Below, in pieces: positions 36,406-46,818 of a stretch of 64,000 nt of DNA. Source of the DNA: Leptolyngbya sp. SIO1E4 (GTDB taxonomy: Bacteria; Cyanobacteriota; Cyanobacteriia; Phormidesmidales; Phormidesmidaceae); assembly GCA_010672825.2 (NCBI GenBank), contig JAAHFU020000003.1, positions 682,001 to 746,000 of the forward strand, in the 5' to 3' direction. The notes beneath the pieces were generated by a model, which was not told where the DNA came from, made no database searches, and saw only the letters and a program-made list of their open reading frames with translations. The position numbers and the translations under genes are program-made. Position 1 is the stretch's first letter. Each line of letters begins with the position of its first letter.

Positions 36406-38091
36406 ATGAAGCCTAACATCATTGTTTGTGGCTTGGGGAGAACGGGCTATCGAGTCTTCTCATTGCTTAAGCAGCAAGGGGCACAGGTCATTGGTATCAG
36501 CAATCAGCCCACCCATGAAGACGGCATCATTGTGGGTGATTTGCGATCGCCCACCACCCTGATCAACGCGGGTATTTACGATGCTTCTGCGCTGCTTTTG
36601 TTGACGTCTGATGACGCGCTCAATTTGGCAATTTTGACCCAAGCGCGGGTGCTCAATCCTCGGATTCGCATCATTAATCGGTTGTTTAATACCCGCTTGG
36701 GCGATCGCCTCGACCATACCCTGGCCTACCACGTCTCCATGAGTGTATCTGCGCTGGCAGGCCCTATTTTTGCGTTTTCAGCCTTGGGTAACAACGCCAT
36801 TGGCCAGATTGATTTTATGGGCACCACCTGGCCCATGTATGAAGAACACATCGACACCAACCACCCCTGGAACGGTGTATTGTTGCAGCACCTATGGACA
36901 AACCGCGATCGCCTGCTGATTTACTACCTGCCTGCGGGGCAAAAAATCGATTTAGTGTCTGCCGTTTTAGGAAATCAGCCGCTAAGAACCGGCGATCGTC
37001 TGATTGTTGCAACCCGTCCTAACGTCTCCAACGTCAAGCGACTTTCCTGGAAAAGGCGCATTAAAAGCTTTCTTGCAGGGCTGACCCAGTTTCAGCGCCA
37101 GAGCCAAGCGGCGTTGCTGATCACCCTGGTGCTGTTTCTGTTGATTACCTTATCGACGCTGATTTACCTGAGCGTCAACTTCAACATTGCCCTGCCCGAT
37201 GCCCTGTACTTTACCGTAGGCATGTTAACAGGGGCCGGAGGCCATGAAGAAGTTGCAGAGCAGGCCCCCGTTGCCGTTAAGCTGTTTACGGCCATGATGA
37301 TGTTGGTGGGGGCAGGGGTGATTGGGGTGTTTTATGCCCTGCTCAACGATTTGGTCTTGGGTAGCCATTTTCACCAGGTCTGGAATGCTGCCCAGCTGCC
37401 CCATCGCCATCATTACATCGTCTGCGGCTTGGGGGGCGTTGGTTTTCAGATTGCTCAGCAGTTGCGCAAAGGGGGCCATGAAGTCGTGGTCATTGAGCGT
37501 GACCCCAACGGGCGATTTATAAACAGTACCCGCGCCCTCAAAATTCCAGTCATGATTGATGATGCCAGCCTGCCTGAAGCGCTCAATGCCGTCAACATTT
37601 CCGCTGCGTCTGCGCTGATAGCCGTCACAAGTCACGATACGGCCAACCTGGAAATTGCCCTCACAGCTAAAAGTCTGGTTCCCAAGCTGCCCATTGTGGT
37701 TCGCAATCAAGATCCTGATTTTGCAAAACAGATACAGCAGGTGTTTGAGTTTGACCGCGTTATGAGCCCCACCGAATTAGCAGCCCCGTCCTTTGCTGCC
37801 GCGGCCCTGGGTGGACGGGTTCTGGGAAATGGTATGACGGCCCATAACCTCTGGGTCGCGCTGGGAACATTAATCACCCCAGGACATCCGTTTTATGGGA
37901 AGCCCGTATCGGCGATCGCCCAGGAGGCGGATTTAGTCCCCCTTTATATCGAAACAACCCGAGGCCCCCTGCACGGGTTGGAGTTACTGGCCCACGTGCT
38001 GGAATATCAGGATGTGGTGTACCTAACCATCCCAGCGAACAAGTTAGAGGAACTGTGGCGCACAGTGCCCTCTCAACTCGCAGCTAGCTGA
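36406..38091 (+). CDS. K+-channel-like protein with two TrkA-N (RCK) domains
   Basis: 561 residues. An N-terminal Rossmann domain (MKPNIIVCGLGRTGYRVFSLL, GxGxxG) is followed by a TrkA-C-like stretch. A two-helix pore module spans about 230-315 (ALLITLVLFLLITLSTLIYL ... YFTVGMLTGAGGHEE ... KLFTAMMMLVGAGVIGVFYAL). A second Rossmann domain (HHYIVCGLGGVGFQIAQQL ... VVVIERD, from about 330) closes the protein. The pore loop TVGMLTGAGG lacks the canonical TVGYG filter, so ion choice is unclear. The architecture places RCK domains on both sides of the pore. It precedes tRNA-Ser and the island. Confidence 0.8.
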   Translation: MKPNIIVCGLGRTGYRVFSLLKQQGAQVIGISNQPTHEDGIIVGDLRSPTTLINAGIYDASALLLLTSDDALNLAILTQARVLNPRIRIINRLFNTRLGDRLDHTLAYHVSMSVSALAGPIFAFSALGNNAIGQIDFMGTTWPMYEEHIDTNHPWNGVLLQHLWTNRDRLLIYYLPAGQKIDLVSAVLGNQPLRTGDRLIVATRPNVSNVKRLSWKRRIKSFLAGLTQFQRQSQAALLITLVLFLLITLSTLIYLSVNFNIALPDALYFTVGMLTGAGGHEEVAEQAPVAVKLFTAMMMLVGAGVIGVFYALLNDLVLGSHFHQVWNAAQLPHRHHYIVCGLGGVGFQIAQQLRKGGHEVVVIERDPNGRFINSTRALKIPVMIDDASLPEALNAVNISAASALIAVTSHDTANLEIALTAKSLVPKLPIVVRNQDPDFAKQIQQVFEFDRVMSPTELAAPSFAAAALGGRVLGNGMTAHNLWVALGTLITPGHPFYGKPVSAIAQEADLVPLYIETTRGPLHGLELLAHVLEYQDVVYLTIPANKLEELWRTVPSQLAAS

Positions 38092-38142
38092 TACGCCGAC
38101 TACGGTCGTATCGGGAGAGGATGTTCTACAATAGCTAAGCCT

Positions 38143-38226
38143 GGAGAGGTGGCAGAGTGGTCGATTGCGTCCGACTTGAAATCGGATGTCCCAAAAGGAC
38201 CGTGGGTTCGAATCCCACCCTCTCCG
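38143..38226 (+). tRNA. tRNA-Ser(TGA)
   Basis: 84 bases without an encoded CCA. Acceptor stem GGAGAGG pairs with CCTCTCC, G is the discriminator, the anticodon stem TCCGA/TCGGA encloses loop CTTGAAA (anticodon TGA), a long variable arm follows (class II), and the T-arm is GTGGG TTCGAAT CCCAC. Its 3' part plus 7 bp is repeated exactly at 63342-63392, which marks this gene as an integration site. Confidence 0.95.
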
Positions 38227-38233
38227 TTGATAT
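38183..38233 (+). repeat. Left attachment repeat (attL), inside tRNA-Ser
   Basis: These 51 bases, from the 3' side of the anticodon stem to 7 bp past the tRNA, match 63342-63392 without mismatch; identity stops at both edges. Tyrosine integrases commonly use tRNA 3' ends in this way. Confidence 0.9.
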
Positions 38234-38238
38234 GCCAC

Positions 38239-38254
38239 GAATACGGTTGTATTC
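38239..38254. terminator. Small hairpin after tRNA-Ser
   Basis: GAATAC-GGTT-GTATTC forms a perfect 6-bp stem just after the tRNA, with a T-rich stretch (TATTTTTGTTT) about 20 bp further on. It could help end tRNA transcription, but the T-run is too far for a classical terminator. Confidence 0.35.
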
Positions 38255-38472
38255 CCGGATCCCTTAGCGTATTTTTGTTTACTGCGGGGGGATGACTCTA
38301 GGCGGGGAAGTGAGAGGATTGCGGCCTCTCAAATCCCCTAGACGTCCCAATCTAGTCAGAGTAGATCGGTACGCTTAGGGTCATTATGGCAGGCGTCTCT
38401 GATTTCACTCTCTCAGGGACTGCCGTGGAGGTTTCCCCTGTTTTCCTCCAAAAAGTAAAAAGGACAAAGCAC

Positions 38473-38748
38473 ATGTTCCATCCATCTGAGAGTGGTTCAA
38501 CTTATCCGCCTGCGACGGATTATCAACCAGCGACGACATCGCACAGCCCAGTTATGCTCCCGCCCCATAATCAAGAAGTTCTCCGAATGTTTCTGCTGGG
38601 GGACTACGGCGCCATTCGCAGCATGATTGGTCGCTTGGCCACCAGTGGCATTGCCGATGCAACGCGGTGGACGCCGCTGCAGCCGACGGGTCGAGAGGGG
38701 GAGTACATCACGGTACATACCAAGCGCATGGCTCCCGAAACCCGCTAG
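38473..38748 (+). CDS. Small conserved hypothetical protein
   Basis: 91 residues from the ATG at 38473, preceded by AAAAAGGAC; an in-frame ATG at 38386 is less likely. The C-terminal part LPPHNQEVLRMFLLGDYGAIRSMIGRLA ... TGREGEYITVHTKRM looks well constrained and reminds me of small cyanobacterial proteins of unknown role. The N terminus is Pro/Thr/Ser-rich. A terminator hairpin follows. It is the first gene inside the island; if its relatives prove to be core genes, the left boundary would need rethinking. Confidence 0.55.
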   Translation: MFHPSESGSTYPPATDYQPATTSHSPVMLPPHNQEVLRMFLLGDYGAIRSMIGRLATSGIADATRWTPLQPTGREGEYITVHTKRMAPETR

Positions 38749-38782
38749 CGCTTGGCTAATAGGTCTGTTTACCTTATCAATG

Positions 38783-38816
38783 CCCTCTTGCAGTTGAGTC
38801 TGAAGAGGGTTTTCTT
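38783..38816 (+). terminator. Rho-independent terminator
   Basis: CCCTCTT and AAGAGGG form a 7-bp stem around a 13-base loop, followed by TTTTCTT. It lies 35 bp after the small hypothetical gene's stop. Confidence 0.7.
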
Positions 38817-39221
38817 GTGAGAGAGCACATCTACAGCTCTTTGCCAAGATGTAGTGAGTCAGATAGGGCTGCAACTCCGACAGAGGCAGATCGGAAGCAG
38901 TTGGCTGAGCGGCGATCGCAAATCCCCCACTATCAAGCTCAAGCCCAAGAGAAATTTGGCAAGGAGCTCTCGAAGGCAGCACTGCTAGCCGTGCTTGACC
39001 TCCACAACCAAGCCCCCGCTGCCGCTGCTGACTTTATTGAGCATCTCCCTAGTCACGACCCTACACCTCAGGCTCTCATTGAAGCTCGGGCGAAAAGCTT
39101 CGTCAACCCAGCAACTGGGCAACTGGAGGCCCCTGGACTTGGCAATAGTCCAAGCACCGTTAAGGCTGATCAGAAACGACGGGTGAATGAACTCATGCCC
39201 CAGCCCAACTCAAACCCCTAA
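38817..39221 (+). CDS. Doubtful small ORF, possibly a degraded gene
   Basis: 134 codons from a GTG that touches the preceding terminator's T-run, which makes this start unlikely. The middle (RRSQIPHYQAQAQEKFGKELSKAALLAVLDLHNQAPAAAADFIEHL) is helical and protein-like, while the ends look random. No family is recognised. Either a real gene with a misjudged start or a remnant. Confidence 0.3.
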   Translation: MREHIYSSLPRCSESDRAATPTEADRKQLAERRSQIPHYQAQAQEKFGKELSKAALLAVLDLHNQAPAAAADFIEHLPSHDPTPQALIEARAKSFVNPATGQLEAPGLGNSPSTVKADQKRRVNELMPQPNSNP

Positions 39222-39758
39222 AGAAGAAATAGAGCTGACGGTTTTCAGTCTCTAGCCTAATCGCTTATTTCACCTATAACGTCTACAACTTTGGCTAAGC
39301 AAGGATTCCACCTTGTTTATCAATCCTACAACGTTAGTTCTTGTAGCGTTCTATCTGGTATTTAGCAGACATTAGCTCAATCAACACATTACTGAATAGT
39401 ACAAAAGCACCCCAAACAGCGTAGTAATCAAGCGTATTAACTGACGTCGTTGATTCTCCATTCAGTAAGTGGGCTAAAACAACTTGAAATACAGGGATAG
39501 TTGCCGCTCTTGGACAACTATTCCACGATCAACTGCTCCACGATAGGTAATCGACAAGATTTAAGTTTTGACACGTCAAATATGCAGGTTTGAGCACCTT
39601 GTTCTCTAATATAACTAGAGCAACCCGCCATACGGTTTTAGTTTTGAGATGTCCCATAGTATTGGATTCAGGCTGATCCATCGCATCATTTAGGTGCAAA
39701 GTTAAGCATTGTTTTGCAATAGTTTTGATGGACGCATCCTTAATAATTTTCGACAAAA
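39222..39758. other. AT-richer gap with one coding remnant
   Basis: About 540 bp between the doubtful ORF and the NACHT pair. It contains a minus-strand membrane-protein remnant (39334-39513) and otherwise no supported gene. The last ~200 bp should hold the promoter of the NACHT pair. Confidence 0.5.
39334..39513 (-). pseudogene. C-terminal remnant of a multi-pass membrane protein
   Basis: About 59 codons with no start codon read RAATIPVFQVVLAHLLNG ... LDYYAVWGAFVLFSNVLIEL and end IERYKN. Two hydrophobic helices and the final short basic tail resemble the end of a DMT/EamA-type permease. The frame closes upstream at 39529-39531. Probably the stub of a displaced gene. Confidence 0.35.
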
Positions 39759-40211
39759 ATGTTTTGGAAAAAGTTCTTTAAACCAGAGAAGCCTAGTCAG
39801 TCGCAGAGCGTCAGCAACTTCTCCCAGACGGGGAGCATGATGCAACTAGGGCAAGCTGGGCGCGACCTGCAACAGAGCCAAACAGGGGAGCTACAAACCC
39901 AACAACAGGGGCTGACCGGGACAGAGGTAGTGACTCTGCTCGAACAGTTAGAAGCCGCCGTTAAAGGAACTTCTCTTGACCCAACTGTGCAAGAGGAACT
40001 GCTGGACTATCTGCGTCCAGCCAAGCGAGAAGCTGCGAAGGAAACACCCAATAAGGGACTAGTGGAGAAAAACCTGAAACAGGTCAGCGCAACCCTGAAC
40101 ACGCTGAAGGAAACCACCGAAGCTGGCAAAAGCCTATGGCAAACCGGAACAGAAATTTTTAAGGCTGTAGCCCCTTGGCTTGGGGTTGCTGTTGCATTCT
40201 TTGGGCTCTAG
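39759..40211 (+). CDS. Small membrane partner of the NACHT protein (candidate effector)
   Basis: 150 residues. Residues about 14-45 (QSQSVSNFSQTGSMMQLGQA then GRDLQQSQTGELQTQQQG) are Gln/Ser/Gly-rich, and their core MQLGQAGRD is shared with the N terminus of the next gene's product (VQLAQAGRD). A helical domain (about 52-125; LTGTEVVTLLEQLEAAVKGT, LVEKNLKQVSATLNTLKE) and a C-terminal hydrophobic segment (APWLGVAVAFFGL) follow. It lies 56 bp upstream of the NACHT gene, same strand, so likely one operon. Inference: a membrane-acting effector recruited through the shared motif. No family name is known to me. Confidence 0.65.
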   Translation: MFWKKFFKPEKPSQSQSVSNFSQTGSMMQLGQAGRDLQQSQTGELQTQQQGLTGTEVVTLLEQLEAAVKGTSLDPTVQEELLDYLRPAKREAAKETPNKGLVEKNLKQVSATLNTLKETTEAGKSLWQTGTEIFKAVAPWLGVAVAFFGL

Positions 40212-40267
40212 CTCGGCCCTGAGGACAAAAGGCCATAGACAGCAGATGGAGGGGATAAGCGGCGACG

Positions 40268-42325
40268 ATGGCACGGCAAGATCAGAGCATCGAGGGTAGT
40301 CAGATCCACAATAGTCAGGTCCAACTCGCTCAGGCTGGGCGAGACGCTGTCAGTTTTCAAAATAGCCACGATAACCAGGTCATTATCAATAATGCCCTCT
40401 TGCAACTGGGTCCGTCTGGGTCACCTGGAGTGAACTGGGATTGGGCAAGACGGTTCCTGGAGAAAAAGCAGCTGCCCAACATCCGTAAACGGTTGACCGA
40501 TACCCTGGGCCGAGAAAGAGTGCTAATGTCGGTTGGTCTCAGGGAGGAATTGAGCTGGGTCGGCAGATCGCCATTGGAACCGGCGCGAGTTTTGCAGATT
40601 GAAGGTAAAGCGGAAGCTCCCCTCGACCCACACCAGCTTTTGATTGAAACCTTTAGGCGAGACGATATTGCTGGCAAGCTGCTGATTTTGGGGACACCAG
40701 GTTCTGGTAAAACAACGGCCCTACTCAGTCTGGCAGAACAACTGGTGTGTGGTGCCCTGGATCAGCCTAAAACGGTGATTCCGGTGCTGTTTGAACTATC
40801 GACCTGGCGCAAAGATAATCAAAGCATTCACGATTGGTTGATTGAGCAACTGTATGAGCAGCACGGGGGTAATCGCAAAGCCAAAGTGTATGAGCGATGG
40901 CTAGATGAGCAGGTGCTGTTGCCGCTGATGGATGGCCTGGACGAACTAGGATTTGAACGCCAGCAAAAATGTACCCAAAAGCTGAAGACGTTTGCGGGGC
41001 AATATCCTTATTTAGTGGTGTGCTGCCGTACAAAGGAATTTACCCAGGCGGGTATCAAGCTCAACACGCTGAATGGGGCGATCCGGTTAGAGCCCCTGTC
41101 GGATCAGCAAATTCAAGCTTTTTTGCAACATCAACAGTCCCCTCTGTGGTCAGTGATTCAAACAAATCCTCGACTAAAAGTTCTTTTAGAGACAACCCTG
41201 GAAGGCGATCCAGGACTATTACGAGTGCCTTTGTTCGTGGCCCTGGCGGCACGGACCTATAACCCTAAGCACCCTTTTGAAAGCAAAACAGACCTGCTCA
41301 ATCAGTACATTGAGCGGCAGGTATCGCGGGACATGCGGGAAAGTGACCGCCGTAATGACTTAGAAAAGAAGAACTGGGTCTATCAAACTCTAGAACAAGA
41401 ACCTGGTAGACATCAAACTCAACGGACACTGGTCTGGCTAGCACAGCAGCTGCAGAAAAACAATACTGTGGAACTGCTGATTGAACACATTCAGCCAAAC
41501 TGGTTAGAAAAAAAACGGGAAAGAATACGATATCGGCTAACTTTTGGACTAGTTTATGGGCTGATTGTCGGGCTGCTGGCTAGCGGGCTTTTTGCAGGGC
41601 TAGGATTGTTGCTATTTGGGCCAGTTGGAGGGTTACTAGGGGCCTCTGCTCAGATCGAACCGGTTGAGACATTCAAAATCACCTTATCCCAAGATGTACG
41701 ACGAGAAATTTTATACAGTTTGAGAAATTGGCTTATAGGAGGGTTTGTTTTTGGACTGATAGTAGGATTAGGTGTCGGGCAGATGTACGGGCTGGCTACA
41801 GGACTGGCTAGCGGACTGGGCGATGGATTGACAGTTGGACTGATGGGGGGGCTAGTATACGGTCTGGTGAGAGGGCTGAAGCAAGATTTAAAGCTGCGAT
41901 CTCGCCCCAATCAAGGTATCTGGAACTCGCTACAAAGTTTCTTGTGGATAACAGCTCTGTGCTATCCCCTTAGTGTTGTTATTCATGCAAGCAGTATCGC
42001 ATTTCCCTCTTACATCCACGAAGGAATTCCTTATGGAGAAAGCGCAAGCGGTTGGGTGATTTTGAGGGATCTCTGGCAAAGCATTTCTTATTCTCTATTG
42101 CAAGGTATTTGTGGTGCACTGTTGTTTGGATTGGTTTCCGTAGGTGGTCGGGCCTGCCTTCAACATATGTGCTTACGATGGGTGCTCCAGCAAAGTGGTA
42201 TTGTTCCCTGGAACCTGGCTCGATTTCTCAACTACTGCACCGAGCGTCGCTTACTGCAACGGGTGGGGGGCACCTATCGCTTCTTGCACCGAGAACTCCT
42301 GGACCACTTTGCCAGAATGACTTAG
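40268..42325 (+). CDS. NACHT-domain NTPase with membrane C-terminal region
   Basis: 685 residues. The N-terminal ~45 residues (SQIHNSQVQLAQAGRDAVSF and on) share a motif with the upstream small protein. The NACHT module has Walker A GTPGSGKTT (142-150), Walker B LLPLMDGLDEL (217-227) and sensor VVCCRTKEF (250-258), then a helical region. A Gly/Leu-rich membrane region starts near 430, with several segments such as YGLIVGLLASGLFAGLGLLLFG. The C terminus (RFLNYCTERRLLQRVGGTYRFLHRELLDHFA) is typical of cyanobacterial NACHT proteins. STAND NTPases of this kind act as sensors in anti-phage or cell-death systems; that role here is inferred. Confidence 0.85.
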   Translation: MARQDQSIEGSQIHNSQVQLAQAGRDAVSFQNSHDNQVIINNALLQLGPSGSPGVNWDWARRFLEKKQLPNIRKRLTDTLGRERVLMSVGLREELSWVGRSPLEPARVLQIEGKAEAPLDPHQLLIETFRRDDIAGKLLILGTPGSGKTTALLSLAEQLVCGALDQPKTVIPVLFELSTWRKDNQSIHDWLIEQLYEQHGGNRKAKVYERWLDEQVLLPLMDGLDELGFERQQKCTQKLKTFAGQYPYLVVCCRTKEFTQAGIKLNTLNGAIRLEPLSDQQIQAFLQHQQSPLWSVIQTNPRLKVLLETTLEGDPGLLRVPLFVALAARTYNPKHPFESKTDLLNQYIERQVSRDMRESDRRNDLEKKNWVYQTLEQEPGRHQTQRTLVWLAQQLQKNNTVELLIEHIQPNWLEKKRERIRYRLTFGLVYGLIVGLLASGLFAGLGLLLFGPVGGLLGASAQIEPVETFKITLSQDVRREILYSLRNWLIGGFVFGLIVGLGVGQMYGLATGLASGLGDGLTVGLMGGLVYGLVRGLKQDLKLRSRPNQGIWNSLQSFLWITALCYPLSVVIHASSIAFPSYIHEGIPYGESASGWVILRDLWQSISYSLLQGICGALLFGLVSVGGRACLQHMCLRWVLQQSGIVPWNLARFLNYCTERRLLQRVGGTYRFLHRELLDHFARMT

Positions 42326-42581
42326 ATGTACAAGTTAATCCTTTCGTTGAATATTTGCCCCTAGCCGTAGCCATTCACCAATAAGGTTTCTCCTTTCTAC
42401 CATCCTCCAGCCCTGATATCTCGAAGCAAGCCCGACGGAAGGAGTCGTAGGTTTGGGCTTGATGGGCCGGCCCCACGCTATACTCTCGCGGCCACCGGGA
42501 ATGTCCCATCCCACACCTCACATTACTGTTCTTGGCTCACAGAGACATTCCCCGGTGCTGCCCAGCGGCGAGCGTCCCTCT

Positions 42582-43690
42582 TTATAGTTCTAGTTGGGAA
42601 CGCTGACGCTGACGCTGTTCGCGCTGCTCCCGCTCATATGCCTGCAATCGCTGATAGACCTGGTTCAAGTTTTCCATGTCCTTTGCCTGTAACTGGGACG
42701 GCTCTACCTGTTCCCAAGCACCTGTCGTTTCATCCCAACGCGCCGTCATCAGCCGCGCTTGATCCTGACGACGAACGAACACCAGAGATTCATCTTCCCA
42801 GTAGGCTTCATAGGTACGACCTTGATGACTGTCTTCACCTAGACGCTCAAGATAGTCGGCGACGATCGCAGCAGCGGTTTGGGTACGGTCTTGTTGTTGC
42901 TGTTGCTCAAATCGCTTCAGGCCTAGCTGCAACTGTTCTACTTCTGGCTCTCCCAGGTGGCAAAGTTCAGTCGGTTCCCATCTTTCGGTTTCCACATTCC
43001 AGGCGGCTTGCATCAGTTTTTGGTGATCGCTGAGGCGCGTCAGAGTCAGGTGTAAACCATCCCAGTGGGTGGCATAGGTTCGCCCTTGATACGCCATGCC
43101 GTCAGCGCTCTGGATGATTTGGTAGAGAATCGGGGCAACAATTTGCGTCCGCTCCTGTTGCTGCTGCCAGCGTTCTTCAGCCGTCAGAGGAGGACGTTGA
43201 TTGATAGCCTCAATCTCAGATTGCATTTCTGAGCTGTATCTGACGCCTCAATGCTTCTGCAGCCCCGGAAAAGTATAGGCTCGTCCCAGTTTAGTACCGC
43301 TAAACGCCACCCCATCGAGGGCATAGCTGATACCTTTGACTTTGCCGGTGAGCGTGTAACCCACTCGCACATTCACGCCGTTCGCTTGGAGCTGCTTCAT
43401 AAACTCAGTCATCGTTGGACTATCGGCTGCAGACTGCTTGATCTGAGTCAGCAGCTGCTCCCGTGTCCCTACTTCGCCCGTGCACCACACCCGTCGCATC
43501 TCACCGGTCGTCGGTGCCCGACTGTCACGCTCCCGTGAGGAGGGTGTCGGGGTCAACTGATACTGCTTTTCCAGTTCACGAATCACCTTTTCACTGCGGG
43601 GATATTCCCAGGAATCCGTGACGGTGGTGCCGTCAAGAATGCGAATGCGACTCGCGACAATGTGGATGTGGTCGCGGTCGAGATCGCAAC
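42582..43690 (-). pseudogene. Relaxase/mobilisation nuclease, N-terminally deleted and with an in-frame stop
   Basis: Read from 43690 leftwards the frame gives CDLDRDHIHIVASRIRILDG (the HxDxxHxH-type histidine motif of MobA/VirD2 relaxases), DSWEYPRSEKVIRELEKQY, RAPTTGEMRR and GISYALDGVAFSGTKLGRAYTFPGLQKH, all characteristic. A TGA at 43248-43250 interrupts exactly where relaxases continue, and the same frame then runs on (GVRYSSEMQSEIEAINQRPP) for about 220 more codons. A CGA-to-TGA change is the simplest cause. The N-terminal part, including the catalytic Tyr, is missing at the joint near 43690. Non-functional. Confidence 0.85.
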
Positions 43691-44224
43691 CTTCACTTTG
43701 AATATGCGATCTTCTCTGATGACGAACAGCAAACCCGAGCCGATGAAATTATCGAGTTAGCCAAAGCCAAGACGGTGATCATCTCCTTGCCCTCCCAGGT
43801 CGGGCGACCGTTAGGCAATTGGTTAGAGGATGCCATTCCCACCGCCTCGCGCTATGACATTGAATTTGTCTATTGGTTTATCTCAAGTGGGGCCTACGAG
43901 TCTCTCGATCTGCTCAAGCAAGAACTCCAACGACACGGAAACCAGATGCCCTTTGTCCTGGTGCGTAACCATGGCGTGGGTGAAGAGTGGGATATTGAGC
44001 AGGTGGAGGGATTGCCTGCCTTGATGCAATCATTGAACGTCCCGGCGATCGATTTTCCCAAGCTACCGATTAAAGAGCGGAATCTGCTGGACAAAAACAA
44101 TCTGACTCTAGGGGATGCCAGAACTTCAGAGGTCTTTAAGAGTCGTTCGATTAGTCAGGACCGGATTGAGAAATTCCTGCGCAAAGCCTATGCCGCCTTT
44201 GAAGCCACAGGGTTAGTGACATGA
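43688..44224 (+). pseudogene. MobD/ParA-like ATPase lacking its Walker A region
   Basis: The open frame reads LHFEYAIFSDDEQQTRADEI, KTVIISLPSQVGRPLGNWLE, FVYWFISSGAYESLDLL, FVLVRNHGVGEEW and IEKFLRKAYAAFEATGL, which match the C-terminal three quarters of MobD-like CobQ/ParA-family proteins that accompany cyanobacterial plasmid relaxases. The first ~50 residues, with the P-loop, are absent: the sequence abuts the relaxase remnant head to head near 43690. A GTG at 43775 could still start a 149-residue product without a nucleotide site. Its stop overlaps the next gene (ATGA at 44221). Confidence 0.7.
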
Positions 44225-44898
44225 GCAGGAACTCAGACGCAAACGGCTTAACTGAGGCGCAGCGGGCACTCCTGCGTAAGTTCCCTCAGTTGGAAGCGGA
44301 TGACCCACTGGTTGAAATCGCGGCCTGGGTGAACTCGGTTGAGAGCAAGCTAGACCGATTTGATGACAAGCTGGATCGATTTGATAGCAAGCTGGACCTG
44401 TTTGGAGGCAGTATCGCGCAATGGACGATCGGACTTCACAAGCAAGCGGAGACGGTCTGCGACCTGGCCAAGCAGGTCGTCAATCTCCATTCGACGCTAC
44501 AGCAGACTGCCAGAGGCAACGACGCTATCACGAACACCTTGCACAACTTGAAGCCTGCCATCGACAGCTTGCTGAAGGACTCCCAGTCACACAGGCTCTC
44601 AATCGCAGCACAGAACGACAACTTCAATCACTTGAGTCGCGAGATGGCTCAGATAGAGTCCCAGACTCGTCAACTCAACAGTCTCGACGAGCGCGTCATG
44701 CATCGGATCGCGGCCTCGAGCGATGAGGAATGGCGACGTTGGATCATGGCGATATTAGCGGTGAGTATGATGGGGATATTAGCACTCGGGGGATTCTCGT
44801 ACTTACAGGCACGGCAGGCGAATCATCTCAGCCGTTTGCTCAATTCGACACTCATTCGACTGGAGCGGATTGAACGAGCCTTTGGCATTCAGCCTTAG
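44221..44898 (+). CDS. Coiled-coil membrane protein coupled to the MobD-like remnant
   Basis: 225 residues. The N terminus (LTEAQRALLRKFPQLEADDPLVEIAAWVNSVE) is followed by short heptad-like repeats (KLDRFDDKLDRFDSKLDLF) and a long coiled-coil region, one membrane helix (WIMAILAVSMMGILALGGFSYL, about 171-192) and a short basic tail. Proteins of this shape follow mobD-like genes on cyanobacterial plasmids, so a mobilisation-accessory role is inferred. The start overlaps the upstream stop. The frame is intact, though its partners are broken. Confidence 0.55.
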   Translation: MSRNSDANGLTEAQRALLRKFPQLEADDPLVEIAAWVNSVESKLDRFDDKLDRFDSKLDLFGGSIAQWTIGLHKQAETVCDLAKQVVNLHSTLQQTARGNDAITNTLHNLKPAIDSLLKDSQSHRLSIAAQNDNFNHLSREMAQIESQTRQLNSLDERVMHRIAASSDEEWRRWIMAILAVSMMGILALGGFSYLQARQANHLSRLLNSTLIRLERIERAFGIQP

Positions 44899-45027
44899 GT
44901 GTTCGACTGAATGGTGTTCGGGACACAGCCTGAAAACTTCTAGCTAGAAGGTTGCTCGCCGAGTGTTCGGAATCTGGCCCCGAATTAGAAGGTTCGTGAT
45001 CGTTTTAACGTCTAAATCAGGGGCAAA

Positions 45028-46818
45028 TCAAGGTTTGGATATCTCTGGCACTAAGTCATTGCCTGATTGGACCTGCCATAGCCTGGTGTAGCGCCCACCA
45101 AGACCAAGTAATTCTTCATGAGTCCCCCGCTCCACGATTTGCCCCTTCTCCATGACATAGATGCCGTCGGCCTGACGAATGGTTGAAAGGCGATGAGCAA
45201 TAGCAATAGTGGTTCGATTTTGGGTAATCCCCTGTAAGGATTTCTGGATGGCGGCTTCGGTTTCGTTGTCGGTGGCTGAAGTCGCTTCATCCAGCACTAA
45301 AATCGGCGGGTCTTTGAGCAGGGCACGGGCGATCGCAATCCGCTGTCGCTCTCCCCCAGAGAGCTTCTGCCCCCGTTCGCCCACAATCGTGTCGTAGCCC
45401 TGGGGGAGTTGCTCAATAAATGCGTGGGCTTCGGCCAATTTTGCCACTTGGATAATCTGTGCTTGACTGGCCTCAAAGCTGCCGTAGGCAATATTCTCAG
45501 CCACGGTGCCATGGAACAAAAACACATCCTGGCTGACCCAGCCAATAGCACGACGCAGATCGCTGAGATTCAGGGTCTGAATGTCTTGATCATCGATGAG
45601 AATGTCTCCTTGCTGAGGTGTGTAGAATCGCATCAGCAGCTTGACCAGCGTACTTTTGCCAGAGCCCGTGGCCCCCACAATGCCGATGGTGGCCCCGGCG
45701 GGAATGTGTAAGGAGAGCTGCTGGATGACAGACTGCCGCTGGCGGTAGGCAAAGGTGATGTCTTGAAACGAGATTGCTCCGTGCAGTGTTGTGGGAAAAA
45801 CGATTGCAGGGCTGACAAATTGCTCAACTGAACTGTCCAACAGCCCCATCACTCGCCGCACTGAGGCCATCGCTCGCTGATATTCATCGAGAATCTCCCC
45901 CAGCTCGGTAAAGGGCCAGAGCAAATCTTGCACGATGAACACCATAAAGCCGTAGGTGCCGACGCTGAGCTGTCCTGCCAGCACCGCTCGCCCACCCAGA
46001 TACAGCGTGGCGACAAACCCGAGCAAAATCAGAAATCGCAGCAGCGGCTGAAATGCCGTGCTCAGGGCGATCGCCCGCCGGTTGCTCAGGCGGTAGGCAT
46101 GGCTTTCAGCTTCAACTCGGTTTTGTTCATAGGCTTCGGTGGCAAAGCTTTTGATGGTGGCAATGCCAGAGATATTGTTGGCGATACGACCGCTAATTGC
46201 GCCATTGCGCTCCCGCACTTCCCCGTAGCGCGGAGCCAGCCGCTGCTGGAACCAAAACGTACCCCCCAGAATGAACGGAATCGGCACCATCGCCAGCCAG
46301 GCAATGCCAGGAGCCAAAATCACAAAGCTGAGGCCGACGGCAGCGACACGGGTAAAAAAGTCGATCAGGTCGCGGGCTCCGGTATCGAGAAAGCGTTCTA
46401 GCTGGTTGATGTCGTCATTCAGGATGGCCAGCAGCGTGCCGGTGCTGCGGTCTTCAAAGTAGGCCAGCTCTAGCCGTTGCAGATGACCATAGGCATCGAC
46501 GCGCAGCTCGTGCTGGAGGGTTTGAGCCAGGTTGCGCCAGAGTTTATCTGCGCCATATTGAGTGAGGGATTCTAAACCCCAAACGAGAACAGTGAGCAGG
46601 GAAACCACCAGGAGTTGGGTCTGGACACTCTGGATGCCTAGACGAGCGAGTAGAGAGGCGTCGTGCTGGACGAGGATATCGACGGCAACGCCAATCAGGA
46701 AGGGGGGCGCGAGGTCAAAGAGAGTGCGACTGATAGAGCAGAGGGTGGCAGCGGCGATTTGCAGCTGAAACGGTTTGGCGTAGCGGAGTAGACGCCGCAG
46801 GGGAGGCGTAGTGACCAT
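45028..46818 (-). CDS. ABC exporter, fused permease-ATPase (iron module 1)
   Basis: 596 residues. Six membrane helices fill the first ~310 residues (MsbA/multidrug-type permease). The ATPase follows with Walker [14 protein letters not shown]-loop [21 protein letters not shown], signature KLSGGERQ, Walker [15 protein letters not shown] and H-switch AIAHRLS. It is probably an exporter; its place behind siderophore receptor and binding-protein genes suggests siderophore export or handling, which is inference. Two relatives lie in the island: a frameshifted copy (53322-55099) and a fragment (59940-60182), with long near-identical stretches in the ATPase part. Confidence 0.88.
   Translation of the reverse strand: MVTTPPLRRLLRYAKPFQLQIAAATLCSISRTLFDLAPPFLIGVAVDILVQHDASLLARLGIQSVQTQLLVVSLLTVLVWGLESLTQYGADKLWRNLAQTLQHELRVDAYGHLQRLELAYFEDRSTGTLLAILNDDINQLERFLDTGARDLIDFFTRVAAVGLSFVILAPGIAWLAMVPIPFILGGTFWFQQRLAPRYGEVRERNGAISGRIANNISGIATIKSFATEAYEQNRVEAESHAYRLSNRRAIALSTAFQPLLRFLILLGFVATLYLGGRAVLAGQLSVGTYGFMVFIVQDLLWPFTELGEILDEYQRAMASVRRVMGLLDSSVEQFVSPAIVFPTTLHGAISFQDITFAYRQRQSVIQQLSLHIPAGATIGIVGATGSGKSTLVKLLMRFYTPQQGDILIDDQDIQTLNLSDLRRAIGWVSQDVFLFHGTVAENIAYGSFEASQAQIIQVAKLAEAHAFIEQLPQGYDTIVGERGQKLSGGERQRIAIARALLKDPPILVLDEATSATDNETEAAIQKSLQGITQNRTTIAIAHRLSTIRQADGIYVMEKGQIVERGTHEELLGLGGRYTRLWQVQSGNDLVPEISKP

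What the first reader, a model, noticed from the sequence alone, without database searches (positions are those of the whole stretch)
43660..43720. One deletion joint removed the N termini of both the relaxase and the MobD-like ATPase
Seen: reading left from about 43690 the frame is relaxase, starting at its histidine motif; reading right from about 43690 the frame is MobD-like, starting after where a P-loop should be. The two are head to head with nothing between. A single deletion of the divergent promoter region with both N termini explains it and would have stranded the element.
Basis: partly seen in the sequence, partly recalled or inferred. Interest (0 to 1): 0.55.

Follow-up and report, generated by a model that had tools for sequence, protein, structure and literature searches.

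The report
Dead plasmid-transfer gene pair, joined head-to-head
In a cyanobacterial chromosome, one break has fused the leftover back halves of two plasmid-transfer genes, and the two halves appear to come from different plasmid lineages; it is a fossil of a mobile element rather than a working system.

Summary
Relaxase homology (minus strand) ends at 43687; MobD-type ATPase homology (plus strand) begins at about 43685-43709. Each edge is certain to about 20 bp. The relaxase has lost about 98 codons and carries an in-frame TGA. MobD has lost its P-loop, which 21 of 21 aligned relatives keep.

Intact relatives exist: in 16 of 16 records chosen for carrying both genes, the two face outward, with other genes between them. 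At least ~1.5 kb of genes is missing, not only a promoter.

The relaxase arm groups with another copy in the same genome and a Leptolyngbya plasmid. The MobD arm groups with pLBY-type modules. Placing the window MobD in the relaxase's lineage is rejected (AU p 6e-5 or lower); the converse test on the whole relaxase clade is weak (p 0.028). So the joint lies in a mosaic module or spans two modules, rather than being a plain deletion in a co-inherited one. Short homology at the joint could not be tested.

By-product: an undescribed ~160-nt element, mostly 3' of mob genes, with covariation that rests on three divergent copies.

The parts
38142..38227 (+). tRNA-Ser (UGA), left of the mobile-element remains; a possible integration site, not shown to be one
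   Evidence: ARAGORN, Rfam tRNA
38863..39212 (+). Remnant 84% identical to a gene near the sister element in C3 (L008 591-940), same order and orientation relative to the relaxase
   Evidence: blastn
42418..42577 (-). ~160-nt element directly 3' of the relaxase gene
   Evidence: model R1, 177.9 bits (the window copy is one of the model's own sequences); pair counts
42582..43687 (-). Relaxase pseudogene: residues ~99-464 of the C3:217-kb copy, N terminus missing, internal TGA at 43248-43250
43668..43709 (.). The joint, best placed at 43687|43688; the range gives its uncertainty
   Evidence: end of relaxase DNA homology and start of MobD homology
43688..44224 (+). MobD-like ATPase pseudogene, P-loop missing
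44221..44898 (+). 225-aa protein whose start overlaps the MobD stop (ATGA); counterpart of the gene after mobD in pLBY, C9 and G007
   Evidence: phmmer

Best explanation
A dead mobilisation locus. A single non-homologous joint at about 43687|43688 fused the C-terminal part of a MOBP-type relaxase gene (minus strand) to the C-terminal part of a MobD/StbB-like ATPase gene (plus strand). It removed most of the relaxase nuclease domain, the gene(s) upstream of it (mobC in the sister elements), the intergenic region where oriT would lie (inferred), the first gene(s) of the divergent operon, and the MobD P-loop. The two arms descend from different mob-module lineages. So the loss happened either in a module that was already a mosaic, or as a deletion running from the relaxase of one element into the MobD of a second one. 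Shown: the joint, both truncations, the extra stop codon, the outward-facing arrangement in relatives, and the discordant placement of the arms. Inferred: oriT loss, order of events, and loss of mobility.
For: Homology ends sharply on both sides. P-loop (GGVGK[ST]) in 21 of 21 aligned MobD relatives, absent here. 16 of 16 relaxase/MobD pairs outward-facing, 1,531-13,756 bp between the equivalent points. Relaxase tree: window with ownC3_217k and the Leptolyngbya NIES-3755 plasmid, UFBoot 100; MobD tree: window with pLBY, G022 and G036, UFBoot 94, and with those plus C9 and G007, UFBoot 99. AU rejects the window MobD inside the lineage of its relaxase (p 5.7e-5 and 2.5e-5) and the window relaxase alone with the pLBY group (p 5.2e-5). 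Gene X of the sister elements matches 8 loci of the ParM lineage or with MOBV relaxases, and none of the 6 pLBY/C9-type loci. No orphan N terminus of either gene was found in the 8.2-Mb assembly at E 1e-3. In-frame TGA; 13 of 29 window-specific codon changes non-synonymous.
Against: The ancestor itself was not found: no relative seen pairs this relaxase type with this MobD type. AU for moving the whole relaxase clade (window + two closest) to the pLBY group is only p 0.028, and SH does not reject it (0.208). The relaxase clade is sparsely sampled, and the C11 copy was not in the tree. Other discordances exist: the Gloeocapsa pGLO7428.02 relaxase groups with the window's (86), its MobD with the Nostoc group (98), so the signal is not unique to the window. 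Gene X also failed to match five ParM-lineage loci (L083, L085-L088). Relaxase decay is mild: dN/dS against the copies 0.12-0.17, and one intact copy also shows 12 non-synonymous of 32 codon changes.
Confidence: 0.7

Rival explanations
1. One reading: one deletion inside an ordinary, co-inherited divergent relaxase/mobD module.
For: Same outward-facing order in 16 of 16 examined pairs; the gene after mobD is still in place and overlaps its stop, as in pLBY.
Against: Discordant relaxase and MobD trees and AU tests; sister elements carry a different divergent gene and no MobD.
Confidence: 0.2
2. Assembly chimera: two unrelated stretches joined at 43687.
For: Relaxase copies with 91-93% identity exist in the genome, and one of them is split between two contigs, so this family does trouble the assembly.
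Against: The window relaxase is a distinct third copy with its own stop. No N terminus of a third relaxase or of this MobD was found elsewhere, though a piece of 50-75 residues at about 50% identity could escape E 1e-3. The assembly has 12 contigs and is listed as 99.99% complete.
Confidence: 0.06
3. The arrangement is functional: a shortened MobD or relaxase is still made.
For: The MobD fragment is an open frame of about 180 codons without stops, and the next gene is intact.
Against: The P-loop and most of the nuclease domain are lost, the relaxase has a stop, and no second copy of the joint exists in this genome (both relaxase copies stop matching at 43687).
Confidence: 0.03

Closest known systems
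Leptolyngbya boryana pLBY mob region (NZ_AP014641.1)
   Same: relaxase(-), small gene(-) | gene(+), MobD(+), 226-aa gene(+); its MobD is the closest in the tree set (52.0% over 173 columns)
   Different: Intact; its relaxase is only 26.6% identical to the window's over 177 columns
Cyanobacterial MOBP plasmids with relaxase-mobC | ParM/StbA - X - MobD (pNPM2, p057_B, pANACY.01, pOSC7112.01, pGLO7428.02)
   Same: Relaxases 43.0-51.7% identical to the window's; divergent MobD
   Different: MobD only 30.6-36.4% identical; ParM present; intact by annotation
stbABC of R388, and the StbB-like genes of RP4 (TraL) and pTF-FC2 (MobD)
   Same: An operon with a ParA-like ATPase carrying a deviant Walker A, transcribed away from the MOB genes across oriT in R388 (PMC3098194, passages seen)
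   Different: Window copy truncated; homology of this MobD to StbB or TraL was not tested, only the KGGVGK motif and position

Membership tests
MOBP relaxase (PF03432) | Complete nuclease domain with the catalytic Tyr and the three-His motif | tested here: not met
   The domain of the C3:217-kb copy spans residues 19-143; the window begins at residue ~99 and lacks the His before HIH. Motif roles are recalled, not from a call.
MOBP relaxase (PF03432) | Descent from an intact member | tested here: met
   91-93% DNA identity to two copies; the C3:217-kb copy is an open frame and scores PF03432 at 6.5e-36
MobD/StbB-like ATPase | Deviant Walker A (KGGxGK or AGGxGK) | tested here: not met
   Present in 21 of 21 aligned relatives (19 KGG, 2 AGG), missing here
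MobD/StbB-like ATPase | Sequence homology over the rest of the protein | tested here: met
   E 7.3e-48 and 8.2e-48 to two genomes, 9e-48 to pLBY. Pfam names no family for the fragment; intact pLBY and C9 MobD score CbiA only below its cut-off.
Outward-facing relaxase | MobD mobilisation module | Relaxase and MobD transcribed away from each other with mobC and oriT between | tested here: inconclusive
   Orientation met; nothing is left between the two genes, so mobC is absent; oriT was not testable here

The most novel reading that the evidence does not exclude
The arms of these mob modules are exchangeable units, each ending in the ~160-nt element. In C9, in the C3:217-kb element, and in C10/C11 if those contigs adjoin, one copy lies 3' of the relaxase and another 3' of the divergent arm. 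If the element serves as a recombination or processing site, arm swapping would explain the mosaic seen here, and the joint would be a failed swap.
Probability: 0.1. Interest if true: 0.55.

Novelty: new member of a known kind. Interest (0 to 1): 0.25.

Why it matters
It is an ordinary fate (a mob locus decaying in a chromosome), but the two sides of the transfer region look to have had separate histories before decay. It also places a poorly described cyanobacterial gene set (relaxase-mobC facing ParM-X-MobD) beside the stb-type leading-region operons known from R388. The element found next to it has no Rfam match and could be tested directly.

Tried and rejected
Microhomology at the joint: the relaxase side can be read from the other copies (L007 has the HIP1 octamer GCGATCGC at the breakpoint; L008 does not), but I found no close DNA relative of the MobD arm. 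The best DNA match was 72% over 98 bp, starting 18 bp inside. So short homology is untestable and the HIP1 idea stays a guess.

Empty site: the gene left of the tRNA (36406-38091) matches in 35 of 60 family genomes at E 1e-80. In the four relatives whose stretch I fetched, nothing else of the window or the next 20 kb matched at the thresholds used. The ABC transporter at 45028 has its best relative on another contig than that gene in G007; with draft contigs this is weak. Element boundaries and insertion site remain unknown. Of the 20 direct-repeat families shown (of 21), none involves the tRNA.

A scan of genome contigs with the MobD fragment found no relative. DNA search of plasmids with the 5-kb region: all 20 rows listed (of 229 records) lie in the part of the ABC transporter.

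Right-hand copy of the element: the model finds none after 44898 (with filters off the best score is -1 bit). A 27-base string at 44954-44980 resembles the two ends of the element with the middle missing; I saw it by eye and made the pattern afterwards, so I do not count it.

The MobD half of the table was wrong (alignment end effect) and was redone. One search stopped on a thread error after the relaxase identities; the trees are.

A single-sequence fold of the element is no more stable than shuffles (z 0.34).

Full report
What is there. The window is G000:C3:682001-746000 of an 8.2-Mb genome in 12 contigs. A relative in the same family, G007, is probably an uncultured Halomicronema: its contig C13 and the named record L171 have the same length (43,637) and the same model score. 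Reading left on the minus strand from 43687 the DNA is a MOBP-type relaxase gene; reading right on the plus strand from about 43688 it is a MobD-like ATPase gene. Two further relaxase copies in the same genome, at C11 (92.9%) and C3:217 kb (91.3%), lose similarity to the window at the same base, 43687. The MobD edge is less sharp: the better matches begin at 43685-43709, and the only DNA match near it begins at 43706. The first 19 residues of the relaxase match the last bases of contig C10, and C11 begins at about residue 21, so C10 and C11 probably adjoin.

How much is missing. Against the C3:217-kb copy the window keeps residues 99-464; the PF03432 domain of that copy is 19-143. The relaxase fragment also has a TGA at 43248-43250 where both copies have CGA. 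In MobD, 21 of 21 aligned relatives have GGVGK[ST] near the N terminus (19 KGG; L052 and L058 AGG), and the window fragment starts after it. These 21 are 18 stretches from same-family genomes (of 40 places listed), the C9 copy and two plasmids. In 16 relatives with both genes, the distance between the points equivalent to the joint is 1,531-3,243 bp in six pLBY/C9-type loci and 2,801-13,756 bp in ten loci of the ParM lineage (in some of the latter, insertions lengthen the interval, and the Planktothrix stretch shows no ParM).

Intact relatives. Leptolyngbya boryana pLBY has relaxase(-), small gene(-) | gene(+), mobD(+), 226-aa gene(+). Nostoc, Anabaena, Tolypothrix, Aulosira, Oscillatoria and Gloeocapsa plasmids have a relaxase, usually with mobC, facing ParM (annotated so in most), X and mobD, usually followed by a DUF6753 gene. 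All 16 pairs that I aligned face outward; I chose them because both genes were on one record. As a wider count, of the 60 plasmid records listed for the relaxase (of 295 with a match), 16 are also among the 45 with MobD. By my reading of the two tables, all 16 face outward if two records (NC_019754, CP070234) are closed into circles, and 14 of 16 lie within 7 kb, those two included; the others are 13.5 and 53 kb apart. Of the ten listed at 55% identity or more, nine have MobD. The other 44 of 60 have none, so the relaxase also occurs without it. MobD modules face relaxases of other classes too: Mob_Pre/MOBV in pGLO7428.03, and TrwC-type in Chondrocystis.

Two ancestries. The relaxase tree (19 sequences, 180 columns; the C11 copy not included) puts the window with the C3:217-kb copy and the Leptolyngbya NIES-3755 plasmid (UFBoot 100), and these with pGLO7428.02 (86). 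The MobD tree (23 sequences, 173 columns) puts it with pLBY, G022 and G036 (94), then C9 and G007 (99). C9 with G007, G022 with G036, Oscillatoria with Planktothrix, and the Nostoc-type plasmids keep together in both trees. pGLO7428.02 does not: its MobD goes with the Nostoc group (98). AU tests reject moving the window MobD to the ParM lineage (p 5.7e-5; 2.5e-5 without Oscillatoria and Planktothrix) and moving the window relaxase alone to the pLBY group (p 5.2e-5). Moving the whole relaxase clade is rejected weakly (AU 0.028, SH 0.208). In the sister elements the relaxase and mobC face a 107-aa gene, not MobD. That gene matches gene X of eight loci of the ParM lineage or with MOBV relaxases, and none of six pLBY/C9-type loci at E 0.01; it also missed five ParM-lineage loci. 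The gene after the window MobD matches counterparts in pLBY, C9 and G007, and one in L054, but none in the G022 and G036 loci searched. So the arms differ in origin. Whether the module was mosaic before the deletion, or the deletion ran between two elements, is open.

Age and decay. Relaxase divergence from the two copies is 80 of 1089 sites each; dN/dS is 0.12 and 0.17, and 0.11 between the copies. Window-specific codon changes are 13 non-synonymous and 16 synonymous, against 4 and 29 (C11), and 12 and 20 (C3), in the copies. The loss looks recent relative to that divergence (inference).

Assembly. The N termini that a false join would have displaced were not found elsewhere in the genome at E 1e-3. 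Reads were not available.

What it works like. In R388, two operons leave the oriT region in opposite directions: the MOB genes and stbABC, whose StbB shares a deviant Walker A with its homologs; TraL of RP4 and MobD of pTF-FC2 are named as StbB-like, and deletion of stbB abolished conjugation (PMC3098194: start of abstract, and 12 of 22 passages). By analogy the lost interval here held oriT; that is inference. A search of the held papers for cyanobacteria, plasmid, relaxase and MobD gave one paper, on satellite plasmids in E. coli. A broader search on cyanobacteria and MOBP gave 18 papers, of which I saw ten titles and abstract starts.

Side finding. A ~160-nt element lies on the same strand as, and 3' of, the gene before it. 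Seven copies match strongly (window, C11 twice, C3:217 kb, C6, C9, G007) and three weakly (C9:6370, directly after the gene that follows mobD; C3:221 kb; C10). Eight of the ten follow mob genes: five a relaxase, three the divergent arm, two of these some hundreds of bases after gene X. The copies at C11:6762 and C6 do not (the C6 copy follows a few codons like the relaxase's end). Covariation: in the seven strong copies none of 40 pairs changes on both sides. With the three weak copies, 12 of 40 do; the score 0.262 was reached by 0 of 500 shuffles, the number of double-changed pairs by 3 of 500, but the number of pair types by 80 of 500; slid structures reach at most 0.069. That alignment was fitted to the model, and the double changes come almost entirely from the three related weak copies. 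One copy alone folds no better than shuffles. Rfam has no match on the copies searched. No match among plasmids by blastn, none among viral contigs to an exact pattern, 1 of 292 drawn genomes of the phylum by the model with strict filters, namely this one, and by DNA 2 of 60 in the family. An exact-pattern scan of genome contigs found 11 stretches, of which one (Halomicronema) matches the model strongly and one other only at E 0.012. A paper search listed 6 of 14 papers, none with a title naming such an element.

Noticed in passing
window 42418-42577 (-); L007 1347-1506 and 6762-6923; L008 7799-7954 and 11143-11307; L009 2441-2602 and 6370-6537; L011 8416-8572; L057 9270-9431; L077 14945-15109: ~160-nt element, 3' of mob genes in 8 of 10 copies and sense to the gene before it; in C9 and the C3:217-kb element it is 3' of both outward arms. 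No Rfam match; seen only in this genome and one Halomicronema-like relative.
   Followed up: partly
L043, L078, L079, L083-L086, L088-L090, L092, L093: The MobD arm (often with ParM/StbA in front) faces relaxases of three kinds: MOBP, MOBV (Mob_Pre) and TrwC-type. In many, a segregation-type actin and a MobD ATPase share an operon opposite the relaxase.
   Followed up: partly
G000 C10 end / C11 start (L077, L007): Relaxase gene apparently split across two contigs; together they are 39.8 kb and look like one plasmid-like element.
   Followed up: partly
window 38142-45000: Mobile-element remains, with a NACHT protein (40268-42325) among them, start just right of a tRNA-Ser gene, a common integration site (recalled). 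I did not search this stretch for an integrase by family.
   Followed up: partly
L088 4669-5819: Two genes annotated as acetyltransferases (one as gentamycin 3-N-acetyltransferase) lie between the mobilization genes and the divergent operon of an Aulosira laxa plasmid.
   Followed up: no
L091 3964-4800: MobD of Crinalium epipsammum pCRI9333.02 is annotated as two pieces, and the frame I matched is 135 aa: another likely broken copy. Short MobD pieces also occur in G005 and G015.
   Followed up: no
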